From positions 595,501-659,500 of the forward strand of contig NZ_LR134173.1 in NCBI RefSeq assembly GCF_900635815.1: DNA of 64,000 nucleotides. The letters run 5' to 3'. This document shows positions 2,416-34,023 of this stretch, piece by piece. Made by a program: the position numbers and the translations under genes. Each line of letters opens with the position of its first letter. Position 1 is the stretch's first letter. This stretch comes from Legionella cherrii. GTDB lineage: Bacteria; Pseudomonadota; Gammaproteobacteria; Legionellales; Legionellaceae. The notes beneath the pieces were generated by a model. The model was not told the origin of the DNA. It searched no databases and was given only the letters and a program-made list of their open reading frames with translations.

Positions 2416-2883
2416 GTGCCCCAGCAGAACCTTACAGTTCTCCACTTTCTTTTGCAGGACATAAAAGTCTGTATGGATTTACACTATGTAGAACAAGTTC
2501 TGCCCTTGCCTATGCTTGAAATTGTACCGTCTAGCCCTATCTATTTTGTAGGGCTGATGAATCTAAAAAATAAATGCATTCCTGTTATTGACCTGGCAAT
2601 TTGTACTGGCTTGATACGAAATGAAATATACCCTTTAAATATTCCCATCCTACTGTGCTCCGATGGAGTGCATCAAGTGGGTCTGATTGTTGATAAAGTG
2701 CTTGGATTGAGTGATATCGACAAACAGCAAATCGAAGTACATGAAGAATTTACAACGAATAACTCACCGTTCCTGGGCGCTGTCACTTTAGAAACCGGGG
2801 TTTCTCTATTGCTCGACATCAATTGGGTTTTAGCTCTAAAGTTAACGCAAGAAATCAACCTGGCAGATACCAATCATGAGTAA
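2416..2883 (+). CDS. cheW: CheW-like coupling protein 1
   Basis: A 155-residue single CheW domain. Recognisable elements are the N-terminal strand, YVEQVLPLPMLEIVPSSPIYFVGLMNLKNKCIPVIDLA (the usual RG-x-x-IPVIDL position reads KNKCIPVIDL), and VGLIVDKVLGLSDI in the second barrel. CheW links chemoreceptors to the CheA kinase under the membrane. The start is GTG, preceded by AAGGAA at 2401, about ten bases upstream; there is no in-frame ATG between the upstream stop at 2329 and this codon. First gene of a seven-gene run. By position it corresponds to WspB or WspD of Wsp-type systems. Confidence 0.9.
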   Translation: MPQQNLTVLHFLLQDIKVCMDLHYVEQVLPLPMLEIVPSSPIYFVGLMNLKNKCIPVIDLAICTGLIRNEIYPLNIPILLCSDGVHQVGLIVDKVLGLSDIDKQQIEVHEEFTTNNSPFLGAVTLETGVSLLLDINWVLALKLTQEINLADTNHE

Positions 2884-2889
2884 TATAAC

Positions 2890-3762
2890 ATGGGTAATAA
2901 TACATTAAATGACATAAAAAAACTTGAATCTGCATTTATCGAGTTAATCCATAAGCGCTATGGATTGGTCATCCATGTGAATCAAGCACAAGAGTTAACA
3001 AAAACCATTGCTGTCGCATGCAATAAATTCAGTTATCAACCCCAAGAATACTTAGAGCAATTAAATAACTGTGCCAGCAATTCCTCTTTATTAGCTGATT
3101 TAGTTGCAGCAATTACTGTAGGAGAAAGTTATTTTTTTCGTGATAAAAATCAAATGCAGTTGCTTGAGAATAAACTGTTACCTGATTTAATTAATCAAAA
3201 ATCACAAGACTTCTCTTTAAAAATTTGGAGTGCTGGTTGTTCTTCGGGTGAAGAAATCTATACCCTGGCCATATTGTTGGCGGAGCTCATACCCAATATT
3301 GACCTATGGGACCTCTATTTATTAGGTACCGATATCAATACCAACTCACTTCAAAAAGCATCTGCAGCTATTTTCGGGCAATGGTCCATGCGTTCTATTC
3401 CAGAAAAATACTTACAACGCTATTTCGTGAAAAATGACCGGACTTACGTTCTTTCACCCGAGATTCGTGATTTAGTACAATTTAAATTCCTTAACTTATG
3501 CGATAACAGCTACCCCTCCATAATCAATGGAATATTTGAGGTGGATTTGATCTTGTGCCGCAATGTGCTTATTTATTTTGATAATGAACTTGCTGCAAAA
3601 ATTATGAAAAAGCTAAGTGCATGTATGCATAAAAACGCTTATCTTATATTAGGTGCATCCGATCCTATTGTCACCAATGGGACAAATCTTGTTTTTCATC
3701 ATGATGGTGCAATCTATTTCTCGCTCGATAGCAGCAGTGAATCAAAGAAGGATATTGAATGA
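2890..3762 (+). CDS. cheR: CheR-type chemoreceptor glutamate methyltransferase
   Basis: A 290-residue SAM-dependent methyltransferase that would methylate glutamates on the receptor encoded two genes downstream. CheR marks are TVGESYFFRDKNQ around residue 80, the SAM motif IWSAGCSSGEEIYTLAILLAE around residue 117, and VDLILCRNVLIYFDNELA around residue 220. There is no TPR extension, unlike Pseudomonas WspC, and no pentapeptide-binding insertion could be judged by eye. It starts 6 bases after cheW1 and its stop overlaps cheW2 by ATGA, so it belongs to one operon. Confidence 0.93.
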   Translation: MGNNTLNDIKKLESAFIELIHKRYGLVIHVNQAQELTKTIAVACNKFSYQPQEYLEQLNNCASNSSLLADLVAAITVGESYFFRDKNQMQLLENKLLPDLINQKSQDFSLKIWSAGCSSGEEIYTLAILLAELIPNIDLWDLYLLGTDINTNSLQKASAAIFGQWSMRSIPEKYLQRYFVKNDRTYVLSPEIRDLVQFKFLNLCDNSYPSIINGIFEVDLILCRNVLIYFDNELAAKIMKKLSACMHKNAYLILGASDPIVTNGTNLVFHHDGAIYFSLDSSSESKKDIE

Positions 3763-4355
3763 TGAATAAAGAACAACAGCACGCTTCCGCTTTGATGCCC
3801 AAAACTGAATTAGCAATAAAAATCCTGAAATCAAGGGCCTTGCAACTTGCAAAACAGGAAATTGATACCACCAAGAATCATGGTATCTCTTTTGTTCATT
3901 TCAAGCTTGGCCAAAATGAAAGTTATGGCGTTTCATATCAATACGTTCAAGAAATTTTACATAATGCCCCTGTAGAGCAACCTCCTTTTGTACCTCATTT
4001 TATCTCCGGGGTGATCAATTGGCGTGGTACGCTGATTACTGTGGTTGATCTCAACAAATTTTTTCATCCTCAACATTCGGAACACAATCCGAAACAGGAC
4101 AATAAATTTATTATCATTATCCGGGCAAACAATACCACTCTTGGCTTGCTGACTTATCGTATTGAAGGCAGTGAGACTTATCAACCGGACCAGTTAGCGG
4201 CCCCATTATCCGCCGTCAACATTGCTAATCCAGAATATATCCTGGGATTACATCATGCGGCCACTGCAATCCTTAATGTGGAAACGATGATATCCAGCTT
4301 AAACCAAGAAATTAAAATGCGTTTATACAAGACAGGAGAGTCTCATGGAAACTAA
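3759..4355 (+). CDS. cheW: CheW-like coupling protein 2
   Basis: A 198-residue protein with one CheW domain after an N-terminal extension of about 45 residues that is polar and helical. The domain contains YVQEILHNAPVEQPPFVPHFISGVINWRGTLITVVDLNKFF, where VINWRGTLITVVDL is a textbook CheW signature. That is a better match than the first CheW. Having two different CheW proteins around cheR repeats the WspB-C-D order. The start ATG overlaps the cheR stop; a second ATG follows directly and could be used instead. Confidence 0.92.
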   Translation: MMNKEQQHASALMPKTELAIKILKSRALQLAKQEIDTTKNHGISFVHFKLGQNESYGVSYQYVQEILHNAPVEQPPFVPHFISGVINWRGTLITVVDLNKFFHPQHSEHNPKQDNKFIIIIRANNTTLGLLTYRIEGSETYQPDQLAAPLSAVNIANPEYILGLHHAATAILNVETMISSLNQEIKMRLYKTGESHGN

Positions 4356-6204
4356 TAGTAATAAACGAAGTTTTATTATTACTGTACGTGCTCGATTACT
4401 TATTGGTTTTATGACCCTGAGCTTGCCCTTATTGATATTAATGATGTTTTTGATACCAAAAGTAGATACGGTGGTCTATCTAAGTCAAAAAATTCGTAGT
4501 GAAAACTTACCCCAAATTCTTGATAGTCAAATATTCCAAGCACAAGATCTTGTTGAACATTGGGCAATGACCGGCGACCAGGAGGCCAGGGAACATTTTG
4601 CACTGCTGTGGAATGAAATCAATAAGGTTCGCAATCAATGGGATCAAGCAATGCACTCCCTGGGTAACAAAAACTTAAGGGATGCATGGGATAAATTACA
4701 AGAGTTATATATCCCTCTTTATGATATTCAAGCATCCATAATAAATGCCCCTAGAGATCCCAATAATCAAAATAATGTAGAAAATAGCAGACATATGACA
4801 AGAACTGTTGAAAATGCAATGATTGACATTTTATTGGGCTCCTATTCTCCAGAATTAGGTAAAAGAAATGGTGGGTTATATGTGCTTTTAGGGCAGGAAA
4901 TAGAAAAAAATACCCATACAATCAATGACAGCTTAAGCTCTTTAAAGATGATCGCTTATTGGCTATTGAGCCTTACTATTATCCTCACGATTTTAGTTCC
5001 TTATATAACACAGCGTGCGATTGCCAATCCTGTAGACAAAGCAATTAATATAGCAGAACGAATTGCTGCGGGTGAACGTAATGTAGTTATCCAAATTCAT
5101 TCAGCAGATAAATTAGGAAAATTGCTTTTATCCCTCAAAACCATGCAAGAAGCAATTAGAAAAAATGAGGAAATCCTCCGCACCAAAGAAGAGGAATCAC
5201 GGGAATTATTTGAGAAGCTTGTTAATTCATCGAAAAAATTCAGGCTACATAGCAGTAAAGTTGCAGCGGGAGATCTCAGAGAACGTCTTGAAATCGATAA
5301 AGAAGATATACTGCAGGATCTCGGTAAAGATTTAAATTTGATGACGGATGGTTTGGCATCAATTACAGCAAAAATTACCAAAGTCAGTAATGACATTGTC
5401 ACTATGGTGGGAACCGTTCTCACTTCTGCAAATGAACAAGCAGAAGGGATTACGTCTCAAGCCTCGGCTATCAATGAAATCAGTGCTTCATTAGAAGAAA
5501 TTGATAAGAGCTCAAAACAAACCATGTTGAAAGCACAAACCCTGCGGGAAGTAGCGAAGAACACCTATGAACAAGGGAAACTCGGTACTGAATCCGTCGA
5601 ACAAAGCATTCATGGCATTAAAGCCTCAGAAGAAAAAATGAAGCTTATAGCACAAACCATTCTTGATTTAAGTAACCACACCCAACAAATTGGCGATATT
5701 ACCTCGGTCGTCAACACCCTAGCACAACAATCAAAAATGCTGGCATTAAATGCATCGATTGAGGCATCAAAAGCCGGTGAAGCTGGGAAAGGTTTTGCAG
5801 CTGTAGCCACAGAAGTAAGAAATCTTGCAGAACAGTCAGAACAGTCTACTGTACAAGTCCAAAAAATTCTTGAGGATATTCGACGGACCACTGAAAAAGC
5901 AGTCACCGTGACCGAGGAAGGAACGAAGTCTCTTGATTCAGGAACAAAACTGATTGAGAAAGCAGGCCAAGTAATTAAAACTCTAAGTAAAATGCTTAAT
6001 GAAGCGTCCATTTCTAGCCAACACATTGAGGTGGCAATCCGTCAAGAAGCTGTTGGAATTGAGCAAATTGTTGAGAGTATGAATGAAATAAATCGCACTA
6101 CTTCAACTTTTTCAAGCGGAATAAAAGAGATGATGGCGTTTATTCATAATTTGGATAATATTGCCAAACATCTTAAAGACGATGTGAATATTTATAAAGT
6201 TTAG
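4345..6204 (+). CDS. Methyl-accepting chemotaxis protein (membrane receptor)
   Basis: A 619-residue receptor. The first membrane helix spans about residues 17-38, followed by a periplasmic region of about 165 residues that looks like a four-helix bundle. The second membrane helix is about 203-222, then HAMP about 223-275 (including IANPVDKAINIAERIAAGERN), then a long coiled-coil signalling domain. The hairpin tip is visible as EAGKGFAAVATEVRNLAEQS. No C-terminal NWETF-type tether is present. AGGAGA precedes the ATG, which overlaps cheW2 by 11 bases. It is the only receptor in the operon, so it is presumably the dedicated input; its ligand cannot be told from sequence. Confidence 0.95.
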   Translation: METNSNKRSFIITVRARLLIGFMTLSLPLLILMMFLIPKVDTVVYLSQKIRSENLPQILDSQIFQAQDLVEHWAMTGDQEAREHFALLWNEINKVRNQWDQAMHSLGNKNLRDAWDKLQELYIPLYDIQASIINAPRDPNNQNNVENSRHMTRTVENAMIDILLGSYSPELGKRNGGLYVLLGQEIEKNTHTINDSLSSLKMIAYWLLSLTIILTILVPYITQRAIANPVDKAINIAERIAAGERNVVIQIHSADKLGKLLLSLKTMQEAIRKNEEILRTKEEESRELFEKLVNSSKKFRLHSSKVAAGDLRERLEIDKEDILQDLGKDLNLMTDGLASITAKITKVSNDIVTMVGTVLTSANEQAEGITSQASAINEISASLEEIDKSSKQTMLKAQTLREVAKNTYEQGKLGTESVEQSIHGIKASEEKMKLIAQTILDLSNHTQQIGDITSVVNTLAQQSKMLALNASIEASKAGEAGKGFAAVATEVRNLAEQSEQSTVQVQKILEDIRRTTEKAVTVTEEGTKSLDSGTKLIEKAGQVIKTLSKMLNEASISSQHIEVAIRQEAVGIEQIVESMNEINRTTSTFSSGIKEMMAFIHNLDNIAKHLKDDVNIYKV

Positions 6205-6213
6205 GAGGCACCA

Positions 6214-8505
6214 ATGACTCCAGACGATCACCTATTAAATGAGTTGCTTGAAACGTTCGGCACAGAGCTTGAATCATTATTGACTGTCATCACGGATAAT
6301 TTAGAAAAAATAGAACGTGGTGGATCAATGGATGATGTAAGTCATCTGATGGAAGAAGTTTCGCGAGCAGGGCGTAATATTAAGGTGTCCGCACTTTCTC
6401 TGGGGATTAATGACTTAGGAACCATGGCGGAATACGTTGAAAAGCTGTTTGCACCGTCGCAAAAAGTATCACCAGAAGTCATTAATTTAACGTTTCGCAC
6501 CATTAATGGGATGCGTGAACTCCTTCATCATTTTATAGAAAAAAAACCGCTTTCAACTGCGCTTGACGAATTGTTACATCAATTACAATACGTTCTGATT
6601 TATGAAGAAAAAGAAGAATCGCCAGAAGAACAACCTCCATTATCTGAAGAGAACCCGGTCACCGAAGCCATACCCCTTTCTAAACCATTGGATAATGAAT
6701 TCATCAAAAAAATTGTTGAAACATTTAAAACAGAACTTCAGGAAAATTTAATTACGATTACTGATGGTTTGCTCCAGCTTGAGAAGGGAACAAATTCAGA
6801 ACAAGAATTCCAGGGCGTGCTGAATGAAATGTTTCGAGTTGCCCATAACATTAAGGGTTCTGCACGTGGTATAGGAGCTCAAGATGTCGGTGAGATTGCC
6901 CATCATCTAGAAACATTATTTACAGCAATTCAGAAAAAAAGTATTAAAGTATCCTCTGAACTTATTAATCTTTGCCTGCAATCGATCGATTACATGAATG
7001 AAGCAATGCAATGCTACAGCGAGCAAAGACCGATTTCCTTCGATTTAAAAAAACACTTGCTGCAACTGCAACACTACATGGAATTACCTACTCAAGACCT
7101 ATCATCTACTCGGGAATTGTATGCAAAAGATATGGAAGAATCTGAAAAGGGCCCACATACCCCAACGATACAGGCTAAAACAAGTGAGTTTGAATCAATA
7201 CGTGTCTCTTTGCAAAATTTAGATAGTGTTTCAGTTTATACGGAAGAAATTCAAACCATAAAAATCGCTATTGAAGAGTATTATTCCAAATTAAGTAAAA
7301 TGAATTTCAAAATCGATGATCTACTCCTTTCATGGAAAAAAAATAGAGCTTATTTCAAAACAAATACTGATGGTATCAGTGGACCAATAGATTACCTATT
7401 CACCACAAATTTCGTTGAATTATCCGACATCAATAATTCGATGCACTTAATGCAAAGAGAGTTGTCACTATCTATTAATGAACTTTCCCTATTGTTAAAT
7501 GCCCTGCAAGATGAAATCCGTACCTTACGTCTTATTCCAGTATCCACCCAATTACGTTACCTACCACGTATAGTCCGTGACTTAGCTCAAGAACTAAACA
7601 AACAAGTTAATCTTGAAATAAGCAGTAATGATGTAAAAATTGATAAAATTATACTGGATGGTTTAAAAGACCCAATTGTACATCTTTTGCGCAACGCAAT
7701 TGATCATGGGATAGAAAATGCTGAGGTTCGTAAAGCAGCCGGCAAGCCACCGCAAGGAAATATCCACATCAAGGTCAATCAGGAAGATAATCAGATAGTC
7801 TTCAAAATTAGTGATGATGGAGCAGGCATTAATACCAATGACGTGATTCGTATTGCCCTGCAAAAGAATTTAATTACCCAAGCTGAGCTTGGAAATATGA
7901 AAAAAGAAGATATTCATGAACTCATTTTTCGACCGGGTTTCTCTACCCGTGAAATTGCAACAGATATTTCAGGTCGAGGTATAGGGCTGGATGCGGTGCG
8001 CTCCAATTTGCTCCGTTTAAAAGGCCAGGTGAGTATTGAAAGTCAACCCAATAAAGGGACAATCTTTTATCTCAAAGTTCCACTCACATTGGCTACTGAG
8101 CGTGGATTAATTATCTCCTGTTGCAACCAAATATTTGTCCTTCTTACCAGCTCGGTAGAAAGTGTGATGTTGTTAAAGAAAAATGAGATTATCAACGTCG
8201 AGGGAATCCCTTCTGTTCTTGTCAAAGAACAGCCCGTTTTGTTATGCTCTTTGTCTAAGGCACTGCATCTTAATGAAAAAAAACAAAATTTTAAAGAATA
8301 TATCTCTGTTGTGACAATCAAAAATAATGGAGACCGAATCGCCTTGCTTGTCGATGAAATTATTGGTGAAAGAGAAATTGTACTTAAACCATTACAGGAA
8401 CCATTAACCAATATACCTTGTATAATCGGAGCTACCTTAACAGGCAGCAATCAAATTAATTTCGTATTAAACTCTTCAGAGATAATTAAACGAATGTTGC
8501 TATAG
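6214..8505 (+). CDS. cheA: CheA-type histidine kinase with two Hpt domains, the first degenerate
   Basis: A 763-residue kinase. Hpt-like domain 1 (about 8-115) has R54 where the phosphorylated histidine should be (AGRNIK). Hpt domain 2 (about 165-285) has the canonical site H211 in VAHNIKGSAR. Dimerisation helices lie about 400-445. The ATPase domain shows the N box HLLRNAIDHG (490-499), DDGAGI (534-539) and GRGIGLD (587-593). A CheW-like domain fills about 620-763. There is no C-terminal receiver, unlike WspE. Phosphate is presumably passed to the receivers of CheB and the cyclase next door. A strong AGGAGG lies just before the ATG, overlapping the receptor's stop. Confidence 0.96.
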   Translation: MTPDDHLLNELLETFGTELESLLTVITDNLEKIERGGSMDDVSHLMEEVSRAGRNIKVSALSLGINDLGTMAEYVEKLFAPSQKVSPEVINLTFRTINGMRELLHHFIEKKPLSTALDELLHQLQYVLIYEEKEESPEEQPPLSEENPVTEAIPLSKPLDNEFIKKIVETFKTELQENLITITDGLLQLEKGTNSEQEFQGVLNEMFRVAHNIKGSARGIGAQDVGEIAHHLETLFTAIQKKSIKVSSELINLCLQSIDYMNEAMQCYSEQRPISFDLKKHLLQLQHYMELPTQDLSSTRELYAKDMEESEKGPHTPTIQAKTSEFESIRVSLQNLDSVSVYTEEIQTIKIAIEEYYSKLSKMNFKIDDLLLSWKKNRAYFKTNTDGISGPIDYLFTTNFVELSDINNSMHLMQRELSLSINELSLLLNALQDEIRTLRLIPVSTQLRYLPRIVRDLAQELNKQVNLEISSNDVKIDKIILDGLKDPIVHLLRNAIDHGIENAEVRKAAGKPPQGNIHIKVNQEDNQIVFKISDDGAGINTNDVIRIALQKNLITQAELGNMKKEDIHELIFRPGFSTREIATDISGRGIGLDAVRSNLLRLKGQVSIESQPNKGTIFYLKVPLTLATERGLIISCCNQIFVLLTSSVESVMLLKKNEIINVEGIPSVLVKEQPVLLCSLSKALHLNEKKQNFKEYISVVTIKNNGDRIALLVDEIIGEREIVLKPLQEPLTNIPCIIGATLTGSNQINFVLNSSEIIKRMLL

Positions 8506-8518
8506 TGAATTACGGCCT

Positions 8519-9571
8519 ATGATAAAAATTTTAATTGTTGATGACTCGCCAACAGAAGCTGCATTAATTCAACACATCATAGAATCTGAAAAAGATATGC
8601 AAGTCATTGGTATTGCAAAAAATGGCCAAGAAGCAATCGATCTCGCTGCAAAATTAAAACCTGATCTCATTACTATGGACATTCAGATGCCCATTATGGA
8701 TGGCCTTGAGGCAACGCGCATCATTATGGCCAAAAATCCAACACCAATTGTCGTGATAAGCTCTCTGGTTAATGATGAATCAATTCATGCCACCTTTCAT
8801 ATTCTTGAAGCAGGGGCATTGACTGCTTTAGCAAAACCAGTGAATGTATTTTCTCCCTCTTTTGAAGAAAGTAGAAAACATATTGTTGATATCCTACGAA
8901 GTTTTTCTGATATTCGGGTTATAAAAATACCATTGAAAAAACATCTTGAGGAAAGCAAAAGACATCAGATAGCACATGCTAAAGCAACCCATTACGAAAT
9001 TATAGCGATGGGCGCCTCGATTGGCGGACCTATGGCATTGAAAACCATTCTCGGGCAATTAGCTCCTGATTTCCCTTTACCTATTATGGTTGTTCAACAT
9101 ATGGGTACCGGTTTTATCCGAGGGTTTGCGCAATGGCTTGGAGAAAATATAAGTCTTAAAGTGAAAAATGCTGAAGATCATGAACCCCTGCAAAAAGGGA
9201 CAGTGTACATAGCGGCTGAACCCAAACATATGGAAGTTGAACGTGATCATGAACAACTGATCTGTAGGTTAGTTGATGGCGCCCCAGTTTCTGGTTTTTG
9301 TCCTTCAATTACCCGATTAATGCAATCAATTGCGAAGGTTTCTGGAAAAAAGGCTATTGGAATCCTATTAACGGGAATGAGTGATGACGGCGCAGAGGGT
9401 TTATTGGAATTAAAACAGGCGCATGGACATACCTTGGTTCAAGACCAAGAAAGTTCTATAGTTTTTGGAATGGGAGCTGTTGCTCAGTCATTGAATGCTG
9501 TAGATCAGCTCATTGGGTTAGAGCATATTGCAAGTTATTTAACAAAAATTTGTACCACTGAACAAGAGTAG
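8519..9571 (+). CDS. cheB: CheB-type receptor methylesterase/deamidase with receiver domain
   Basis: A 350-residue protein with an N-terminal receiver (phospho-acceptor D54 in ITMDIQMP) and a C-terminal methylesterase domain. The catalytic triad is visible: S167 in GASIGGP, H194 in VVQHMG and D290 in GMSDDGAEG. The active-site motif reads GASIGG instead of the common GxSTGG, which keeps the serine. It would remove methyl groups added by CheR and so provide adaptation, as WspF does in Wsp systems. It begins 13 bases after cheA with only a weak ribosome-binding site. Confidence 0.95.
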   Translation: MIKILIVDDSPTEAALIQHIIESEKDMQVIGIAKNGQEAIDLAAKLKPDLITMDIQMPIMDGLEATRIIMAKNPTPIVVISSLVNDESIHATFHILEAGALTALAKPVNVFSPSFEESRKHIVDILRSFSDIRVIKIPLKKHLEESKRHQIAHAKATHYEIIAMGASIGGPMALKTILGQLAPDFPLPIMVVQHMGTGFIRGFAQWLGENISLKVKNAEDHEPLQKGTVYIAAEPKHMEVERDHEQLICRLVDGAPVSGFCPSITRLMQSIAKVSGKKAIGILLTGMSDDGAEGLLELKQAHGHTLVQDQESSIVFGMGAVAQSLNAVDQLIGLEHIASYLTKICTTEQE

Positions 9572-9577
9572 CTCTTT

Positions 9578-10861
9578 ATGGAAAAAGAAAGTCCGGTGAT
9601 TTTGGTTGTGGATGACAGCGCCACCATGCGTTTAATTACCTGTAATGCACTACGCCAAACGGGTTTTACTATCATTCAGGCAGAGAATGGTGAAGCAGCA
9701 TTATCTTTACTAAAAACTTCGAAACCCGATGCGATTTTGCTGGATGTAGAAATGCCTGGCTTGAATGGGTTTGAAGTATGTGCTGAAATTCGCAAACTAC
9801 CTGATTGGCGTTATCTTCCGATTATGATGGTTACCGGCTTGGAGGATTATGAATCAATTAATAAAGCGTTCCAGGCGGGTGCGACAGATTTTACCACCAA
9901 GCCCATTAATCCCACGCTTTTAGGCTATCGGGTGCGCTATATGGTGCGCACTAATTCTTACTTTCAAGAACTGCAAGTTGCCGAACAAAAAGTCCGGGTA
10001 CTCAATAATGAACTCATCGATAAGCTAGTCGAGATCCAGCAAAATGCAATTGCCGTAGCACGCTTTGTACCCCAGGATTTTCTGAAGGTGCTGAATCGTA
10101 AAAATATTGCCGACATAAAACTTGGCGACTGCGTTGAAAAAGACATGACCGTTCTTTTTTTAGATATAAAATCATTTACCTCTATGGCAGAACAATTATC
10201 TCCTGTTGAAATTTTCAACCTTTTTAATACGCTAATGAGTTATTTAGATCCAGCCATTCTTAAAAATTCTGGCCTTATTGATAAATATATTGGTGATGCC
10301 ATTATGGCATTATTCAATAATGCGGATGAAGCTGTTGCTGCCGCATTAGATATGCTAGAAGCCTTGCATACGTTTAATACCACACGAGCGCGCGATAATC
10401 TTCCACTCATCCACGTGGGAATTGGAATAAATACAGGCAACTTGATTGTAGGTACCGTTGGTTTTGAGGAGCGTATGGATTGCAGTGTAATTAGTGATGC
10501 GGTCAATATTGCTTCTCGGCTTGAGACCTTAACGCGAAGTTTTAATATCGAACTCATAATTGGTGAAGAAACTTATGAGCAGTTAAAACAAAAAGACAAA
10601 TATAATTTACGTTTCTTAGGCTTATCGACTGTAAAAGGCAAAAGCCTGCCGATTAAAGTTTATGAGGTGTTTAATCATAATCCCCCCACCGAGGTGCAAT
10701 TGAAAAAAGACTCTGCCCCTATTTTTGCGGCAGCTTTAGATCATTATGCGGCGAAACAATTTGAGCAGGCGGCAAGCCTTTTTGAACAAATCGTGACAAG
10801 TAATCCTAATGACTCACCCGCGAAATATTTTTTGCAGCAGTGCAAGGAGCATAGTGCTTAA
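9578..10861 (+). CDS. Receiver-class III adenylate cyclase, predicted output of the chemosensory pathway
   Basis: A 427-residue protein. The receiver is about 6-125 (D12/D13, phospho-acceptor D56 in LLDVEMPG, K108 in TTKP), followed by a helical linker. The class III cyclase domain is about 187-365. All key catalytic positions appear present: metal aspartates D196 (LFLDIKSFT) and D240 (YIGDAIM), adenine-selecting K236 (LIDKYIGD) and D307 (VISDAVN), and transition-state N310 and R314 (DAVNIASRLE). This K/D pair predicts ATP, not GTP, as substrate. The C-terminal 45 residues resemble one TPR. Its position matches wspR, which instead carries a GGDEF domain. The product cAMP is inferred, not shown. 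Confidence 0.92.
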   Translation: MEKESPVILVVDDSATMRLITCNALRQTGFTIIQAENGEAALSLLKTSKPDAILLDVEMPGLNGFEVCAEIRKLPDWRYLPIMMVTGLEDYESINKAFQAGATDFTTKPINPTLLGYRVRYMVRTNSYFQELQVAEQKVRVLNNELIDKLVEIQQNAIAVARFVPQDFLKVLNRKNIADIKLGDCVEKDMTVLFLDIKSFTSMAEQLSPVEIFNLFNTLMSYLDPAILKNSGLIDKYIGDAIMALFNNADEAVAAALDMLEALHTFNTTRARDNLPLIHVGIGINTGNLIVGTVGFEERMDCSVISDAVNIASRLETLTRSFNIELIIGEETYEQLKQKDKYNLRFLGLSTVKGKSLPIKVYEVFNHNPPTEVQLKKDSAPIFAAALDHYAAKQFEQAASLFEQIVTSNPNDSPAKYFLQQCKEHSA

Positions 10862-10929: not shown

Positions 10930-12067
10930 TTAGCCCTCTTTAATTTTATCAACAACTTTTTGGTTGAGGTGGGTTACGATAAGCCCTACTAATTTAACAG
11001 CTTGGTCATAATCACGCTTATCAAACACCCCGGCTTGTTGATGCGCATAACGAATAGGTACACCGATATTAATACTGGGAACGCCGGAACCAGAACCTTG
11101 CACTTTTGATCCATCTTGTCCATAACCTACTTCTGATTCCAACTGAACTTGAATGTTATTATTTTTGGCTAAATCTAAAATCCAATTAAGCAGTTCTTGA
11201 TGAGGAATCATAGAACGATCGTACACAAATAAAGTAGGCCCTTTACCCAATGCAATGCGGCCTTTTCGTTTTGCAACAAGAGCGGGGTAATCATCGGCAA
11301 TACCGACCTCAACATTAATTGTAATATCGGGATGCGTGCTTTGATATACGGTGCTCGCGCCACGCAAACCAACCTCCTCTTGTACTGTTGCAGCTGCATA
11401 CAGTTGATTTGGGCGGTCCTTATTTTTTATGGAATCAAGAACATCGCCAATGAGTGCCAATCCGAGTCGATCATCAAGGGCTTTTGCTAAAAAGCGATTT
11501 TCACTTAATGGACTAAATTGACTGGCAGGAGTCACTTGCAATCCTGGGCGTACCATAAATTTTGTTTCGGCTTGTTCCTTGCTTTCTGCGCCAATATCAA
11601 GAAACACTGCATTAGCCGCAGGCAGATTATTTTTTTTTAGCTTCTTCGAGAAGATGGGTGGAGTCCATTCCAGAATAGGCCAAAATAGGACCGTTAGGAG
11701 TCGATACCGTCCAACGTTGTGCAAAGATTACCGAAGCAGGGATACCGCCCAAGGGGATGATCTTTAAAAAACCATCTGGAGTAATTGATTCAACCATGTA
11801 GCCTACTTCATCCATATGCGCCATTAATAAAACATGAGGGCCTTTTTGATCCTCCTTATATTGACCAATTAAATTGCCCATACCATCCACAGTAAGATTA
11901 CTCATGGATTGCTGCCATTGTTGCTTTACTAGATCACGAACAGACTTCTCAAAACCGGATGCACCTGCCAAATCAGTTAACTTCACCAAAGAATATTCAT
12001 CTACAACCGCGCCGGTAGTCGCACTGATTAGCATCAACCCTATGGTTAACCCATTTAATTTTTTCAT
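10930..12067 (-). pseudogene. Exported M42/M20-like metallopeptidase, split by a frameshift in an A9 run
   Basis: Two overlapping minus-strand frames make one peptidase. The N-terminal part (to 11627) has a signal peptide and LMAHMDEVGYMVESI, the first zinc ligands of the M42 aminopeptidase fold. The C-terminal part (from about 11638 to 10930) has KALDDRLGLAL, AAATVQEEVGLRGAS and NIGVPIRYAHQQAG, with the catalytic glutamates. The break lies in T9 at 11630-11638 (A9 in the gene). With eight A the frame continues as EEAKKNNLPAANAVFLDIG and gives about 378 residues, the normal size. It may be a pseudogene, a slippage site or a sequence error. The enzyme would trim peptides in the periplasm or outside the cell. 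Confidence 0.85.
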
Positions 12068-30939: not shown

Positions 30940-31347
30940 TTATGTATGGTGCGTTGCCCAATATATATTCAACGCATCACCATATTCCAAAGGTTTAATA
31001 ATTTGCCCTCTCACATTTAAATCTTTAATTGCTAGCTTATCTTCCTTAGTATACGCATTTGTCAAAATAAAAACTTCTGTAAATGCTAATGAGGGATCCT
31101 TTCGAATAATTTTTAGCAAATCGATACCGTTTACTTTGGGTACATTAATATCAAGAAGTATCACCTTGGGATGGATTTTTTCTTGTCCATAAAGTCCCAA
31201 TAATTTGTTAAGTGCTTCTTCACCATTGGAAGCCACTTCAATCGCACAAGATTCTTTAACTTTTTTAAATATGCGCTTTACACCCTCGACATCTACGACA
31301 TCATCCTCGATATACAGAATATCAACGGCGTTTTTGTGAGTTTCCAT
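30940..31347 (-). CDS. Single-domain response regulator (Rcp1-like)
   Basis: A 135-residue receiver without an output domain. The acidic pocket IEDD lies near the N-terminus, the phospho-acceptor Asp in VILLDINVPKVNG, T in FILTNAYT, and the conserved lysine in IIKPLEYG. The insertion LLGLYGQEKIHPKV before the phospho-site is typical of Rcp1-type regulators that partner phytochrome-like or PAS histidine kinases. The start METHK at 31347 has GGAG upstream; the longer frame from 31368 is less likely. It is divergent from a paralogue at 31548 and near a PAS histidine kinase. Confidence 0.85.
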   Translation of the reverse strand: METHKNAVDILYIEDDVVDVEGVKRIFKKVKESCAIEVASNGEEALNKLLGLYGQEKIHPKVILLDINVPKVNGIDLLKIIRKDPSLAFTEVFILTNAYTKEDKLAIKDLNVRGQIIKPLEYGDALNIYWATHHT

Positions 31348-31547
31348 AACAATTCTCCACCCGCGCATTCCTGTACTTTAAATGATATTTAAAAGTTTGC
31401 GGAAATCAGGAACTATTTTGGCTAAAAAAATTTAGCGCCAATGCCTCTATAAGGCTTATTTTAATTATAGTACTAAAAATTTATCAATTTTGAAAAAAAT
31501 TAAATTAATTGCCTATAATTTATATACATGTAAATAAGGATAAAATT

Positions 31548-32000
31548 ATGTATCAATTAGATAAATCAATTCATTTCATGCTCATTGACGATGATGTAAT
31601 TGATATCAAAGACGTGCAAAGAACCTTTAAAAAAAATAATATTGATAATCCCCTTCATATTGCAACTAACGGATTAGAAGCATTAAACAAATTATTGGGG
31701 CTAAATGGCGAGAAAAAGATTATGCCCACCCCCCAAATTATTATCCTGGACATCAATATGCCTAAAATGAATGGCATAGAATTTATGAAAAATATCCGTG
31801 CCAATAAACAATTAAAATCACTGCTGATTTTTATTTTTACTACATCAAATAGTGAGAAAGATAAAATGGAGGCATACAACTTAAATGTGGCTGGCTATAT
31901 TGTAAAACCTTTTCAGGTGTCACAATTTATGGAAATAATTTCATCATTACATCATTATTGGAATCTGCTTGAATTTCCTAAAGATAAGAGCAAGGACTAA
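31548..32000 (+). CDS. Single-domain response regulator (Rcp1-like), paralogue of the divergent neighbour
   Basis: A 150-residue receiver: LIDDDVIDIKDVQRTFKKNN at the start, phospho-acceptor Asp in IIILDINMPKMNG, IFIFTTSNSEKD, and lysine in YIVKPFQVSQF. It shares NGLEALNKLLGL and the overall layout with the divergent regulator at 30940, so the two come from a duplication. The start at 31548 has AAGGAT upstream. Its 3' end overlaps by a few bases the convergent histidine kinase, its likely partner. The output is probably by protein interaction, or by phosphotransfer back to a kinase. Confidence 0.87.
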   Translation: MYQLDKSIHFMLIDDDVIDIKDVQRTFKKNNIDNPLHIATNGLEALNKLLGLNGEKKIMPTPQIIILDINMPKMNGIEFMKNIRANKQLKSLLIFIFTTSNSEKDKMEAYNLNVAGYIVKPFQVSQFMEIISSLHHYWNLLEFPKDKSKD

Positions 32001-33279
32001 TCACTATTTTTTTTCCTGATTTGCTTAGGCCAAGTAAATGAGATCGCCGTTCCATGGCCTACTTGAGATTCCACCATCACTTTGCCTCCCTGAGATTCAA
32101 CAATTTTTTTCACAATACTCAAGCCAACACCGGTGGACTCCAATTCATCTCTTGATTTAAGTGTTTGAAAAACGATAAAAATTTTATCAAAAAATTCAGG
32201 CTCAATGCCTGGGCCATCATCTTCGATCGTAAACTGATAAAATGACTCCCATGAATCGACCTCGATTGTAATTGTGCCCTTTTTTCGATGGTGATGTTTG
32301 ATGCTATTATTTATCAAATTGGACAACACCTGAATCAATGGAATCTTCGCTGTTTGAAAAACGGGTAATTGTTTAGGGTATATAAACTCAAATTGGCCCT
32401 CAGGATTAAGGCCTTCGATAATGTCTTTCAAAATTATTTTAGTATCGACAAGTTCAACATTCAAATCGACCCGACCAGCACGCGAATATTGTAATATGCC
32501 ATCAATTAAATTGGACAAACGCAAAGTACGTTTACGTAATAATGACAAGTTTTCTTTTGATTTCTCATCAATCTTGTCGGCATTATCCTCTTCAATCCAA
32601 GTGGCTAATCGTTCGATTGCACGCAAAGGTGCCTTTAAATCATGTGAGGTAATATAAGCAAATTGTTCCAATTCTTCATTGGTCTTAATCAATTGATTTT
32701 CAACTCGCTTCGCTTCTGTAACGTCTTTGGAAATTAAAAGAAAACCAATAGGCTTACCTGAATCGTCTCGACGTAAGCTTAAGGTAACCGAAGCAAGAAA
32801 ATGTGACCCATCTTTGCGAACCCGTTCAAACACTCCTTCAGTTTTCCCTTCCTGCAAAGCTTTTTGTATAAACTCTTGAACTGCTCCCGATTCAATGTCT
32901 TCGGGATATGTAAGAAAAGTAGATTTTTTTTATTTACCATTTCCGAAGCATGGTAACCATAATTGCGGTAAGCTCCTTCATTCCATACGATTATTTTTCC
33001 ATTTAAATCGGTAGCAACAATCGAATAATCTATGGAACTTTCCAGTATATTTTGCAAAATACTTTTTGCATAAAAGGTGTCTTCGTCTGTTTTAATGGTT
33101 TGTGCCTCCAAATTGAGAATGCTTTTTTCCGCGCGCATACTCTCTTTGCTCTTGTGTTTTTCAGTCTGATTTAATTTTTGGCCAAAGGCTCCCAAAGTCT
33201 TTTTCCCACTCGTTTTTTTATCCTCGAGTATTTTTTGTGCTTTCTTATCATGGGAGTTTTGCATCCATTCATATTCCAT
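31997..33279 (-). pseudogene. PAS sensor histidine kinase, split by a frameshift in an A8 run
   Basis: Two frames form one kinase of about 427 residues. The N-terminal part (33279 to about 32931) has a charged leader and a PAS core (SSIDYSIVATDLNGKIIVWNEGAYRNYGY). The rest (to 31997) has the PAS/PAC end, HisKA with the phospho-acceptor His in ITSHDLKAPLRAI, and HATPase (SNLINNSIKHH, IEDDGPGIE, STGVGLSIVKKIVE). The break lies in T8 at 32924-32931; nine would join VNKK to KSTFLTYPEDIESG in frame. There are no membrane helices, so it is a soluble cytoplasmic sensor. It sits among three receiver proteins, which are its probable partners. Confidence 0.88.
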
Positions 33280-33483
33280 TGTAGCTTCCTCAAGAAATGG
33301 ACCTTATTAATATGTCCTTAGAATAGATAACTCTAATTATAGCGTGTGTTTTATGCACTTGCTGATTGATCATCAGCTTCAATGCTGAGAATGGAGTCAA
33401 CATCGGAGAAAATTCAGCCCATGGCTGGTGTCGAATGAGATAACCATCCGGCATAAAGATTACACCCATCGTTTTACGCTGCT

Positions 33484-34023
33484 CTAATACGAGCTGCGTA
33501 TCGGGTTAGATGCAATCAAGATGATAATTGGATTGTCTTTTTGTACGAGTATGATGAGAGTATGTGGGTTGCTTTTCATTGACTGCGTCATCAAAATAAA
33601 AAGACCAGGTTTTTGAATGCACTCTGGGTTGACTGTTTTTGTCCAGGTATTGTATTCGTTAACTAAACGATTCGATTGAATAAAAACCTTGGCGAAAGCA
33701 CTACGCATAAACTCCGAATCTGACCAAGCAATTATGGGAAGATGAGGATATTTTTGCAAAATAACGGCTGCAAGTTGGGGACCATGAGTCGATAACTCAT
33801 CAATCAAATTCAACTCACCATCAATGATAACGAGATCGGGCACATGGGTATCTATACAAGACAATGCGTCTTGACTATTACTCACAACATCTATTGATAC
33901 CGATGCAATTACTGACTCTAAGAGTCGAGACAAACAAAATGCATTAAAGGCATTGTCTTCAATAATTAATACACGCATCGCATCCGGGCTCCCTGTTAGT
34001 TCAGGATTAAGTATAAAGATCAA
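33484..34023 (-). CDS. Response-regulator receiver-like protein with unknown C-terminus
   Basis: Up to 179 residues. A receiver-like domain starts at MRVLIIEDNAFNAFCLSRLLE; the phospho-acceptor position is the Asp in LVIIDGELN, and PIIAWSDS follows. The C-terminal 50 residues (CIQKPGLFILMTQSMKSNPHTLIILVQKDNPIIILIA) are hydrophobic and unlike a normal receiver end. The conserved lysine is not clear. A start at 33978 (MRVL, preceded by GGGAG) fits the fold better than the longer frame at 34023. It is probably part of the adjacent two-component cluster. Confidence 0.7.
   Translation of the reverse strand: MIFILNPELTGSPDAMRVLIIEDNAFNAFCLSRLLESVIASVSIDVVSNSQDALSCIDTHVPDLVIIDGELNLIDELSTHGPQLAAVILQKYPHLPIIAWSDSEFMRSAFAKVFIQSNRLVNEYNTWTKTVNPECIQKPGLFILMTQSMKSNPHTLIILVQKDNPIIILIASNPIRSSY

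What the first reader, a model, noticed from the sequence alone, without database searches (positions are those of the whole stretch)
2416..10861. Wsp-like chemosensory operon whose output is a receiver-adenylate cyclase
Gene order cheW-cheR-cheW-mcp-cheA-cheB-(REC-effector) mirrors Wsp systems, where the last gene is the diguanylate cyclase WspR. Here the last gene has a receiver joined to a class III cyclase with all visible catalytic residues (D196, K236, D240, D307, N310, R314). No stand-alone CheY, CheZ or CheD is present, and no flagellar gene is in the window. The pathway should therefore convert a periplasmic signal into cAMP with CheR/CheB adaptation. L. pneumophila is known to lack a chemotaxis operon, while some other Legionella have one, so this is an accessory trait. 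Known: family functions. Inferred: cAMP output and phosphotransfer to the cyclase.
Basis: partly seen in the sequence, partly recalled or inferred. Interest (0 to 1): 0.85.

Follow-up and report, generated by a model that had tools for sequence, protein, structure and literature searches.

The report
Legionella chemosensory operon wired to cyclase
Some Legionella carry a bacterial "chemotaxis" gene set that probably does not steer swimming but sets the level of the internal messenger cAMP, because its last gene fuses the usual signal-receiving part to a cAMP-making enzyme.

Summary
In detail: seven packed genes, cheW-cheR-cheW-mcp-cheA-cheB-(REC-class III cyclase), window 2416-10861. Of 140 Legionellaceae genomes, 25 carry this cyclase and the same 25 carry the receiver-less CheA, 1.08-1.23 kb apart. 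A 26th genome, G121, has a related CheA with a receiver and no such cyclase. Catalytic and receiver residues are invariant. The best reading is an adaptation-tuned chemosensory pathway whose output is cAMP; phosphotransfer and cyclase activity are inferred.

The host genome has flagellin, but no CheZ, no CheD and no che-linked CheY was found; eight of the 25 operon genomes gave no flagellin match. The operon is not a Wsp orthologue: CheA lacks WspE's receiver and has a phospho-dead extra Hpt, CheR lacks TPRs, and an AU test rejects grouping with Wsp-order operons. Nearest relatives outside Legionellaceae share its gene order but have CheA-REC and longer CheR, some ending in REC-GGDEF. One output swap, c-di-GMP to cAMP, is therefore likely.

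A 2010 L. longbeachae paper described the che genes and the cyclase separately; a 2012 survey lists mononucleotidyl-cyclase outputs in such clusters. Verdict: new variant of a known kind.

The parts
2416..2883 (+). cheW1, 155 aa coupling protein (GTG start)
   Evidence: ORF; PF01584 E 1.8e-20
2890..3762 (+). cheR, 290 aa receptor methyltransferase without C-terminal TPR
   Evidence: PF01739 E 9.9e-51; no TPR hit even at E<=1
3759..4355 (+). cheW2, 198 aa coupling protein
   Evidence: PF01584 E 2.2e-23
4345..6204 (+). mcp, 619 aa receptor: two hydrophobic segments (within residues 14-47 and 199-222), mostly helical periplasmic region, HAMP, MCP signalling domain; no NWETF-like C-terminal tether (motif recalled)
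   Evidence: AlphaFold2 model of residues 1-252, mean pLDDT 82
6214..8505 (+). cheA, 763 aa kinase: pseudo-Hpt, Hpt, HATPase, CheW; no C-terminal receiver
6241..6561 (+). CheA N-terminal pseudo-Hpt (about residues 10-116); Arg54 where the phospho-His should be
   Evidence: PF01627 E 3.2e-4, below cut-off, when scanned alone; R54 in 25 of 26 rows, the other (G121) a gap
6712..6990 (+). CheA Hpt (residues 167-259) with His211
   Evidence: PF01627 E 2.8e-17; H211 in 26 of 26 rows
8519..9571 (+). cheB, 350 aa REC + methylesterase (D54, S167, H194 in 26 of 26 rows)
9578..10861 (+). REC-CYC, 427 aa: receiver, long helix, class III cyclase, C-terminal TPR-like helices
   Evidence: AlphaFold2 model, mean pLDDT 88
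9599..9922 (+). receiver domain of REC-CYC (D12, D13, phospho-acceptor D56 invariant)
   Evidence: PF00072 E 2e-27; 25 of 25 rows
9911..10057 (+). continuous helix, residues 112-160, between receiver and cyclase
   Evidence: DSSP of the model
10142..10645 (+). class III cyclase domain (D196, K236, D240, S303, N310, R314)
   Evidence: PF00211 E 7e-22; matches to solved adenylyl cyclases
10685..10855 (+). C-terminal helices resembling TPR
   Evidence: weak TPR_19 E 5e-4, below cut-off; three helices in the model

Best explanation
This is a non-flagellar chemosensory pathway whose output is cAMP. A periplasmic signal sensed by the operon's receptor (and probably by a second, 73%-identical orphan receptor elsewhere in the genome) controls CheA through the two CheW proteins. 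CheA autophosphorylates on its second Hpt (His211) and passes phosphate to two receivers: CheB, which with CheR provides adaptation, and Asp56 of REC-CYC. Phosphorylation is relayed through the long helix to switch the cyclase dimer and change cAMP. In evolution, a chemosensory gene set that in some of its nearest relatives ends in REC-GGDEF (c-di-GMP) had its output replaced by a class III cyclase in Legionellaceae. CheA lost its receiver and gained a phospho-dead Hpt, and CheR is short and without a TPR tail. Shown here: gene content, order, strict co-inheritance, residue conservation, CheA phylogeny. Inferred: phosphotransfer, ATP as substrate, sign of regulation, signal, the direction of the output swap, and any downstream effect.
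For: Operon packing. Co-occurrence of the receiver-less CheA and this cyclase in the same 25 of 140 genomes, 1,076-1,234 bp apart. Full seven-gene order in 23 of 25 fetched relative loci plus the window; the exceptions are contig-cut G038 and G121, which has a CheA-REC and no REC-CYC. Invariant receiver and catalytic residues. Lys236 plus Ser303, as Lys plus Thr in the best-matching solved adenylyl cyclase. The AlphaFold model's top Foldseek matches include WspR (3bre, 3i5a) overall, with a low TM-score (3bre 0.33/0.42), and CyaC (TM about 0.8 by target length) for the cyclase domain. No CheZ or CheD match. CheW domains outside the operon only as a 103-aa ORF. The REC-CYC CheAs form one clade (100/96), sister to G121's CheA-REC (100/99), inside a 31-row clade (100/100) that also holds operons with GGDEF outputs. 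Class III cyclase genes occur in 4 of 34 other che loci, not in one clade with these.
Against: No biochemical evidence was produced. The host has flagellar genes and stand-alone receivers, so cross-talk is possible. Five further class III cyclases are in the genome, so this one is not the sole cAMP source. The cyclase could have changed substrate: a guanylyl cyclase scores nearly as well in the fold search. Outside Legionellaceae, the nearest REC-CYC relatives are not in che operons: 1 of 68 examined has a che gene within 4 kb, on the other strand. The coupling therefore rests on one family plus more distant cases.
Confidence: 0.75

Rival explanations
1. The pathway controls the cyclase, but the product or the sign differs: the enzyme makes cGMP, or phosphorylation inhibits it.
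For: Position 303 is Ser/Thr, not the Asp of classical adenylate cyclases (the classical residue is recalled). A guanylyl cyclase, Cya2 (2w01), is among the Foldseek matches at nearly the same score as CyaC and CyaB.
Against: Lys236 is invariant; recalled knowledge links this Lys to ATP and Glu to GTP. The best sequence matches in the PDB are adenylyl cyclases.
Confidence: 0.13
2. It is a motility system: CheA mainly feeds a stand-alone CheY-like receiver acting on flagella or type IV pili, and REC-CYC is a phosphate sink or side branch.
For: The host has flagellar genes. Stand-alone receivers exist. The 2010 paper called the L. longbeachae system a chemotaxis system.
Against: 8 of 25 operon genomes have no flagellin match. 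In the window's genus, flagellin is matched in 17 of 23 operon genomes and 16 of 19 others, so there is no positive link. No CheZ or CheD match. In the two flagellar regions inspected I saw no receiver gene (not every flagellar gene region was inspected). The CheY-containing second system of relatives is largely deleted here. Type IV pili were not tested.
Confidence: 0.08
3. REC-CYC is merely a neighbour, driven by another histidine kinase.
For: REC-CYC relatives outside Legionellaceae are not che-linked. The genome has a second REC-cyclase away from che genes.
Against: Strict co-inheritance in 25 of 25 genomes, at more than one chromosomal place and in more than one genus. The cheB-to-REC-CYC gap has a median of 1 bp and a maximum of 7 bp in 24 loci, taking the longest ORFs.
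Confidence: 0.04

Closest known systems
L. longbeachae chemotaxis system llo3298-llo3303 and class III cyclase Llo3304 (PMC2824747; section 13 read and passages seen)
   Same: Two CheW, CheR and CheA within llo3298-llo3302, and a class III cyclase at Llo3304. The window's REC-CYC is 79% identical to an L. longbeachae protein (P0021).
   Different: The paper calls llo3303 CheY; by the conserved order it should be CheB (inferred, not read from that genome). It lists Llo3304 separately and does not join it to the che genes in the passages seen. It leaves 'chemotaxis but no flagella' to future research.
Wsp system of Pseudomonas (WspA-F, WspR; description recalled)
   Same: MCP, two CheW, CheR, CheA, CheB and a last-gene REC plus nucleotide-cyclase fusion joined by a long helix. 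The REC-CYC model's best Foldseek match is P. aeruginosa PA3702, which is WspR (name recalled).
   Different: Output is class III cyclase, not GGDEF; CheA has no receiver; CheR has no TPR; MCP is fourth; separate CheA lineage.
ACF chemosensory clusters with multidomain response regulators (PMC3447774; abstract, section 9 and passages seen)
   Same: That survey lists mononucleotidyl cyclase among output domains fused to REC in CheR-TPR clusters.
   Different: It concerns CheR-TPR clusters. Here CheR has no TPR, and Legionella is not mentioned in its main text (term search).
Halomonas chemosensory cluster 2 (PMC5907407; passages seen, parts of the abstract included)
   Same: Wsp-like cluster with altered gene order and a receiver-bearing nucleotide cyclase.
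   Different: Output is Hpt-REC-REC-GGDEF (c-di-GMP).
Pil-Chp/CyaB axis of P. aeruginosa (recalled; CyaB structure 3r5g matched)
   Same: A chemosensory system raising cAMP; the cyclase domain is similar.
   Different: There the cyclase is a separate membrane enzyme not carrying the receiver (recalled); here the receiver is fused to the cyclase.

Membership tests
Wsp system | Last gene REC-GGDEF (WspR) | tested here: not met
   REC + PF00211, no GGDEF hit; Wsp-order locus L261 has REC-GGDEF
Wsp system | CheA with C-terminal receiver (WspE) | tested here: not met
   No REC in the window CheA nor in the 24 orthologues tested beside it; present in L261
Wsp system | CheR with TPR (WspC) | tested here: not met
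   No TPR at E<=1 in the window CheR; TPR in L261, L199, L202
Wsp system | CheA groups with Wsp-order operons | tested here: not met
   AU test p 5.8e-87 against the clade with L261, L266, L269-L271 (group chosen after seeing the tree; 'Wsp' label rests on gene order and recall)
Wsp system | MCP, two CheW, CheR, CheA, CheB in one operon | tested here: met
   (packing; no transcript evidence)
ACF class of chemosensory systems | Multidomain response regulator as output | tested here: met
   REC-CYC
ACF class of chemosensory systems | Assignment by published CheA class models | not testable with these tools
   Class HMMs not held
ACF class of chemosensory systems | Function other than flagellar or pilus motility | tested here: inconclusive
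   8 of 25 operon genomes have no flagellin match; pili not tested
Flagellar (F-class) chemotaxis | Stand-alone CheY in the operon, CheZ/CheD | tested here: not met
   No CheY in the operon; no CheZ or CheD match in the genome
Class III nucleotide cyclase | PF00211 with two metal Asp, transition-state Asn and Arg, substrate Lys (roles recalled) | tested here: met
   25 of 25 invariant
Adenylate (not guanylate) cyclase | ATP as substrate | not testable with these tools
   Lys236/Ser303 suggest ATP; no assay
4HB-type MCP ligand domain | Four-helix bundle periplasmic domain | tested here: inconclusive

The most novel reading that the evidence does not exclude
A single event in Legionellaceae re-wired an adaptation-capable chemosensory kinase from c-di-GMP to cAMP output. 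It combined replacement of REC-GGDEF by REC-CYC, loss of the CheA receiver, absence of the CheR TPR tail, and gain of a conserved phospho-dead Hpt (Arg in place of His in 25 of 25) that acts as a docking or brake domain. The 'chemotaxis genes' of non-flagellated Legionella would then be an array-based, methylation-tuned cAMP sensor.
Probability: 0.48. Interest if true: 0.72.

Novelty: new variant of a known kind. Interest (0 to 1): 0.56.

Why it matters
It offers a concrete answer to a question left open in print in 2010 (PMC2824747): why some Legionella keep a chemotaxis system without flagella. It also gives a natural case in which one chemosensory kinase lineage seems to have exchanged one second messenger for another, with the accompanying kinase remodelling visible in sister genomes. 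If phosphotransfer holds, it would be a direct CheA-to-cAMP route with CheR/CheB adaptation. Five proteins with a cyclic-nucleotide-binding domain in the host are candidate readers.

Tried and rejected
Considered and rejected: orthology to Wsp. A common origin of all che-cyclase operons: the AU test rejects one clade of the 18 REC-CYC rows plus 4 other cyclase rows, p 4e-6. A non-flagellar reading based on lack of flagella in the host: wrong, the host has flagellar genes. A che partner for REC-CYC relatives outside Legionellaceae: 1 of 68 with a che gene within 4 kb (9 of the 77 non-Legionella loci gave no REC+CYC ORF and were left out). A histidine kinase within 4 kb was found in only 14 of 68 with a single-sequence model, so where the cyclase was recruited from stays open.

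Led nowhere: plasmid searches gave no hit of 60% identity or more, and I looked at no neighbourhood there. Pfam gave no family for the receptor's periplasmic part. The promoter scan upstream found nothing promoter-like. NCBIfam gave a name above its cut-off only for CheB. No fold family can be asserted for the receptor's periplasmic part.

Tree details: one search was a first tree with some badly cut rows. It was remade from 65 of 72 rows; 7 near-duplicate Legionella rows were dropped before building. Three rows (L248, L263, L268) were relabelled from GGDEF to other, and HK rows were merged into other, between the two. The REC-CYC group needed 2 changes, where the window row stood as a group of its own, and is one clade. 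AU groups were named after the tree was seen. The che, GGDEF, REC, CYC and HK profiles used were built by me from few sequences and can miss distant genes.

Not in print? Searches of an open-access library gave no listing that I recognised as joining a Legionella che operon to a cyclase output. Most listed papers were not opened, subscription papers are not covered, and supplementary files were not read.
Full report
Observation. Neighbouring genes overlap or lie at most 13 bp apart. The window lies in a single-contig genome of 3,729,541 bp. The closest relatives of the cyclase, at 96% identity, are named Legionella sp. PATHC038 and PATHC035.

More than chance. In 140 genomes of the family, a CheA at 42% identity or more and without a receiver is found in 25 (a receiver profile hits only G121's CheA among the 26 CheA rows). 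The REC-CYC (59% identity or more, E <= 1e-168; the next match in any genome is 9e-59) is found in the same 25. REC-CYC lies 1,076-1,234 bp downstream of CheA in each. Of the 25 relative loci fetched, 23 hold all seven genes in the same order, and with the window this makes 24 of the 25 REC-CYC genomes. G038 is cut by its contig start. The remaining fetched locus, G121, has mcp-cheA-cheB, a CheA with a receiver and a single Hpt, and no REC-CYC match in its genome at E <= 1e-30. In 18 of the 24 REC-CYC relative loci the operon sits next to gcvPB (L073-L090). In L091-L093 and L096 other genes flank it. L094 and L095 end too near the operon to judge.

The output protein. Receiver residues D12, D13 and D56, and cyclase residues D196, K236, D240, N310 and R314, are invariant in 25 of 25 rows. 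Position 303 is Ser in 23 and Thr in 2. D307 is invariant but is not the substrate-specifying position (recalled numbering: seven before the catalytic Asn). PDB sequence matches are led by photoactivated adenylyl cyclases and P. aeruginosa CyaB. The AlphaFold2 model (mean pLDDT 88) shows receiver, a helix of residues 112-160, cyclase and three C-terminal helices. Foldseek's first match is 3bre, P. aeruginosa PA3702 (WspR; TM 0.33/0.42, so only a shared overall plan), and the cyclase domain alone matches CyaC at TM about 0.8 by target length. A guanylyl cyclase (2w01) is close behind, so ATP is likely but not shown.

The kinase. CheA has two N-terminal Hpt-like domains. The second carries His211. 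The first carries Arg54 in the phospho-His position in 25 of 26 rows, the 26th (G121) being a gap; the neighbouring Asn and Lys are kept. A CheA survey (PMC10782961; passages seen) reports phospho-dead Hpt domains in multi-Hpt CheAs, of unknown function, and that over 90% of CheAs with two or more Hpts also carry a receiver. The Legionella form, with two Hpts and no receiver, is therefore an uncommon architecture.

Is it flagellar? The host has two Flagellin_N matches and, in the regions fetched, ORFs that I read by recall as fliC/fliD/fliS and flgC to flgL. CheZ and CheD gave no match. CheW domains are found only in this operon and in a 103-aa ORF. That ORF and an adjacent intact gene are what is left of a second system (mcp, cheW, cheY, cheA and a gene I call cheC-like) that relatives G115 and G117 keep. 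The name cheC-like is mine; Pfam gave no family for that ORF. Of the 25 operon genomes, 17 have a flagellin match and 8 do not (G038 is only 74% complete); in the window's genus 17 of 23 operon genomes and 16 of 19 operon-free genomes have one. Operon and flagella are thus not positively linked.

Where it comes from. In 369 genomes of the class, six outside the family gave a CheA at E <= 1e-75. Four of the six, L199-L202, keep the order cheW-cheR-cheW-mcp-cheA-cheB; the other two, L203 and L204, are incomplete or differ. L199 ends in REC-GGDEF and L202 in REC-REC-GGDEF. L200 has a receiver, a CheC-like and a PAS-GGDEF gene downstream. L201 shows no output gene. CheR carries TPRs in both CheRs tested, L199 and L202. 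CheA ends in a receiver in L199-L202. A 398-genome phylum sample gave matches in 198 genomes. I fetched 38 usable loci, mostly the best-scoring; 34 had an ORF labelled cheA by profiles that I built. All 34 carry a receiver label on CheA. Downstream of cheA on the same strand, within the stretch fetched, a GGDEF gene is labelled in 10 of 34, a histidine-kinase gene in 9 of 34, and a class III cyclase gene in 4 of 34. Pfam confirms the four cyclase proteins (L254, L256, L276, L278). The CheA tree (65 rows, 350 columns) gives the 18 REC-CYC rows as one clade (100/96), G121 as sister (100/99), and both inside a 31-row clade (100/100) with 12 other loci. Five of the 12 I labelled GGDEF: L199 and L202 by Pfam; L244 (with receiver), L242 (no receiver label) and L243 (on the other strand) by my profiles. 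CheR in those 12 loci is 359-546 aa, against 283-305 aa in 24 REC-CYC loci. Grouping with Wsp-order operons is rejected, as is one clade of all cyclase operons. That GGDEF was the ancestral output is an inference from this distribution; no ancestral-state test was run.

REC-CYC relatives outside Legionellaceae (77 of the 80 loci kept by the scan, from cyanobacteria, Thiotrichales, SAR324 and others) are not che-linked: 1 of the 68 that could be examined has a che gene within 4 kb, divergent (L140 has three che genes within about 7 kb). The simplest reading is that the cyclase was brought to the che genes within or just before Legionellaceae.

The receptor. It has two hydrophobic segments and a mostly helical periplasmic part. 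Its 43 database matches to that part carry Legionella or Fluoribacter names wherever an organism is named. A paralogue 73.5% identical over 615 residues lies elsewhere in the genome, G000 3287554-3289416. The signal is unknown.

Literature. The L. longbeachae genome paper (PMC2824747; section 13 and passages) describes the che genes as a chemotaxis system without flagella, names llo3303 CheY, and lists Llo3304 separately as a class III adenylate cyclase. By the conserved order llo3303 should be CheB and Llo3304 the receiver-cyclase; this is inferred, as I did not open that genome. PMC3447774 already lists mononucleotidyl cyclase among outputs of CheR-TPR clusters. So the kind is known. The specific wiring, the kinase remodelling and the likely output swap are what is added here.

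How it probably works: as in Best explanation. Shown: anatomy, co-inheritance, conservation, phylogeny. Inferred: phosphotransfer, ATP, sign, swap direction and effect. On checking, the main odds were lowered slightly, because GGDEF outputs in the sister clade are Pfam-confirmed for only two loci.

Noticed in passing
window 10930-12067, - strand: A gene downstream of the operon (aminopeptidase by recall) is split into two overlapping ORFs (264 and 146 aa) in different frames. Of the 18 gcvP-flanked relative loci, 12 have one ORF of 377-402 aa, L089 is split too, and 5 gave no match. Described only.
   Followed up: no
G000:C1 about 1598600-1599600 (locus L101 9601-10607): Remnant of a second, CheY-containing chemosensory system: a 103-aa C-terminal piece of CheA and an intact adjacent gene. 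Relatives G115 and G117 keep the whole set.
   Followed up: partly
G000:C1:3287554-3289416 (L102): Orphan receptor 73.5% identical over 615 residues to the operon's MCP.
   Followed up: partly
G000:C1:2071520-2072614 (L103): A second receiver-class III cyclase (364 aa), followed by a 597-aa ORF that looks like a membrane protein; no che gene was recognised nearby.
   Followed up: no
loci L235, L236, L237, L238, L240: Cyclic-nucleotide-binding proteins of the host: a single cNMP domain, a patatin-like phospholipase with cNMP domain, a tandem cNMP protein, one Crp-family regulator with HTH, and a weakly Popeye-like protein.
   Followed up: partly
window 30940-34023: Three stand-alone receivers around ORFs that look like histidine-kinase pieces, not linked to che genes.
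   Followed up: no
L254 (G823), L256 (G546), L276 (G558), L278 (G581): Other che operons with class III cyclases: REC-CYC-protein kinase in L254; in L256, L276 and L278 a receiver-bearing gene precedes the cyclase gene, whose own receiver is absent (L256) or weak (L276, L278).
   Followed up: partly
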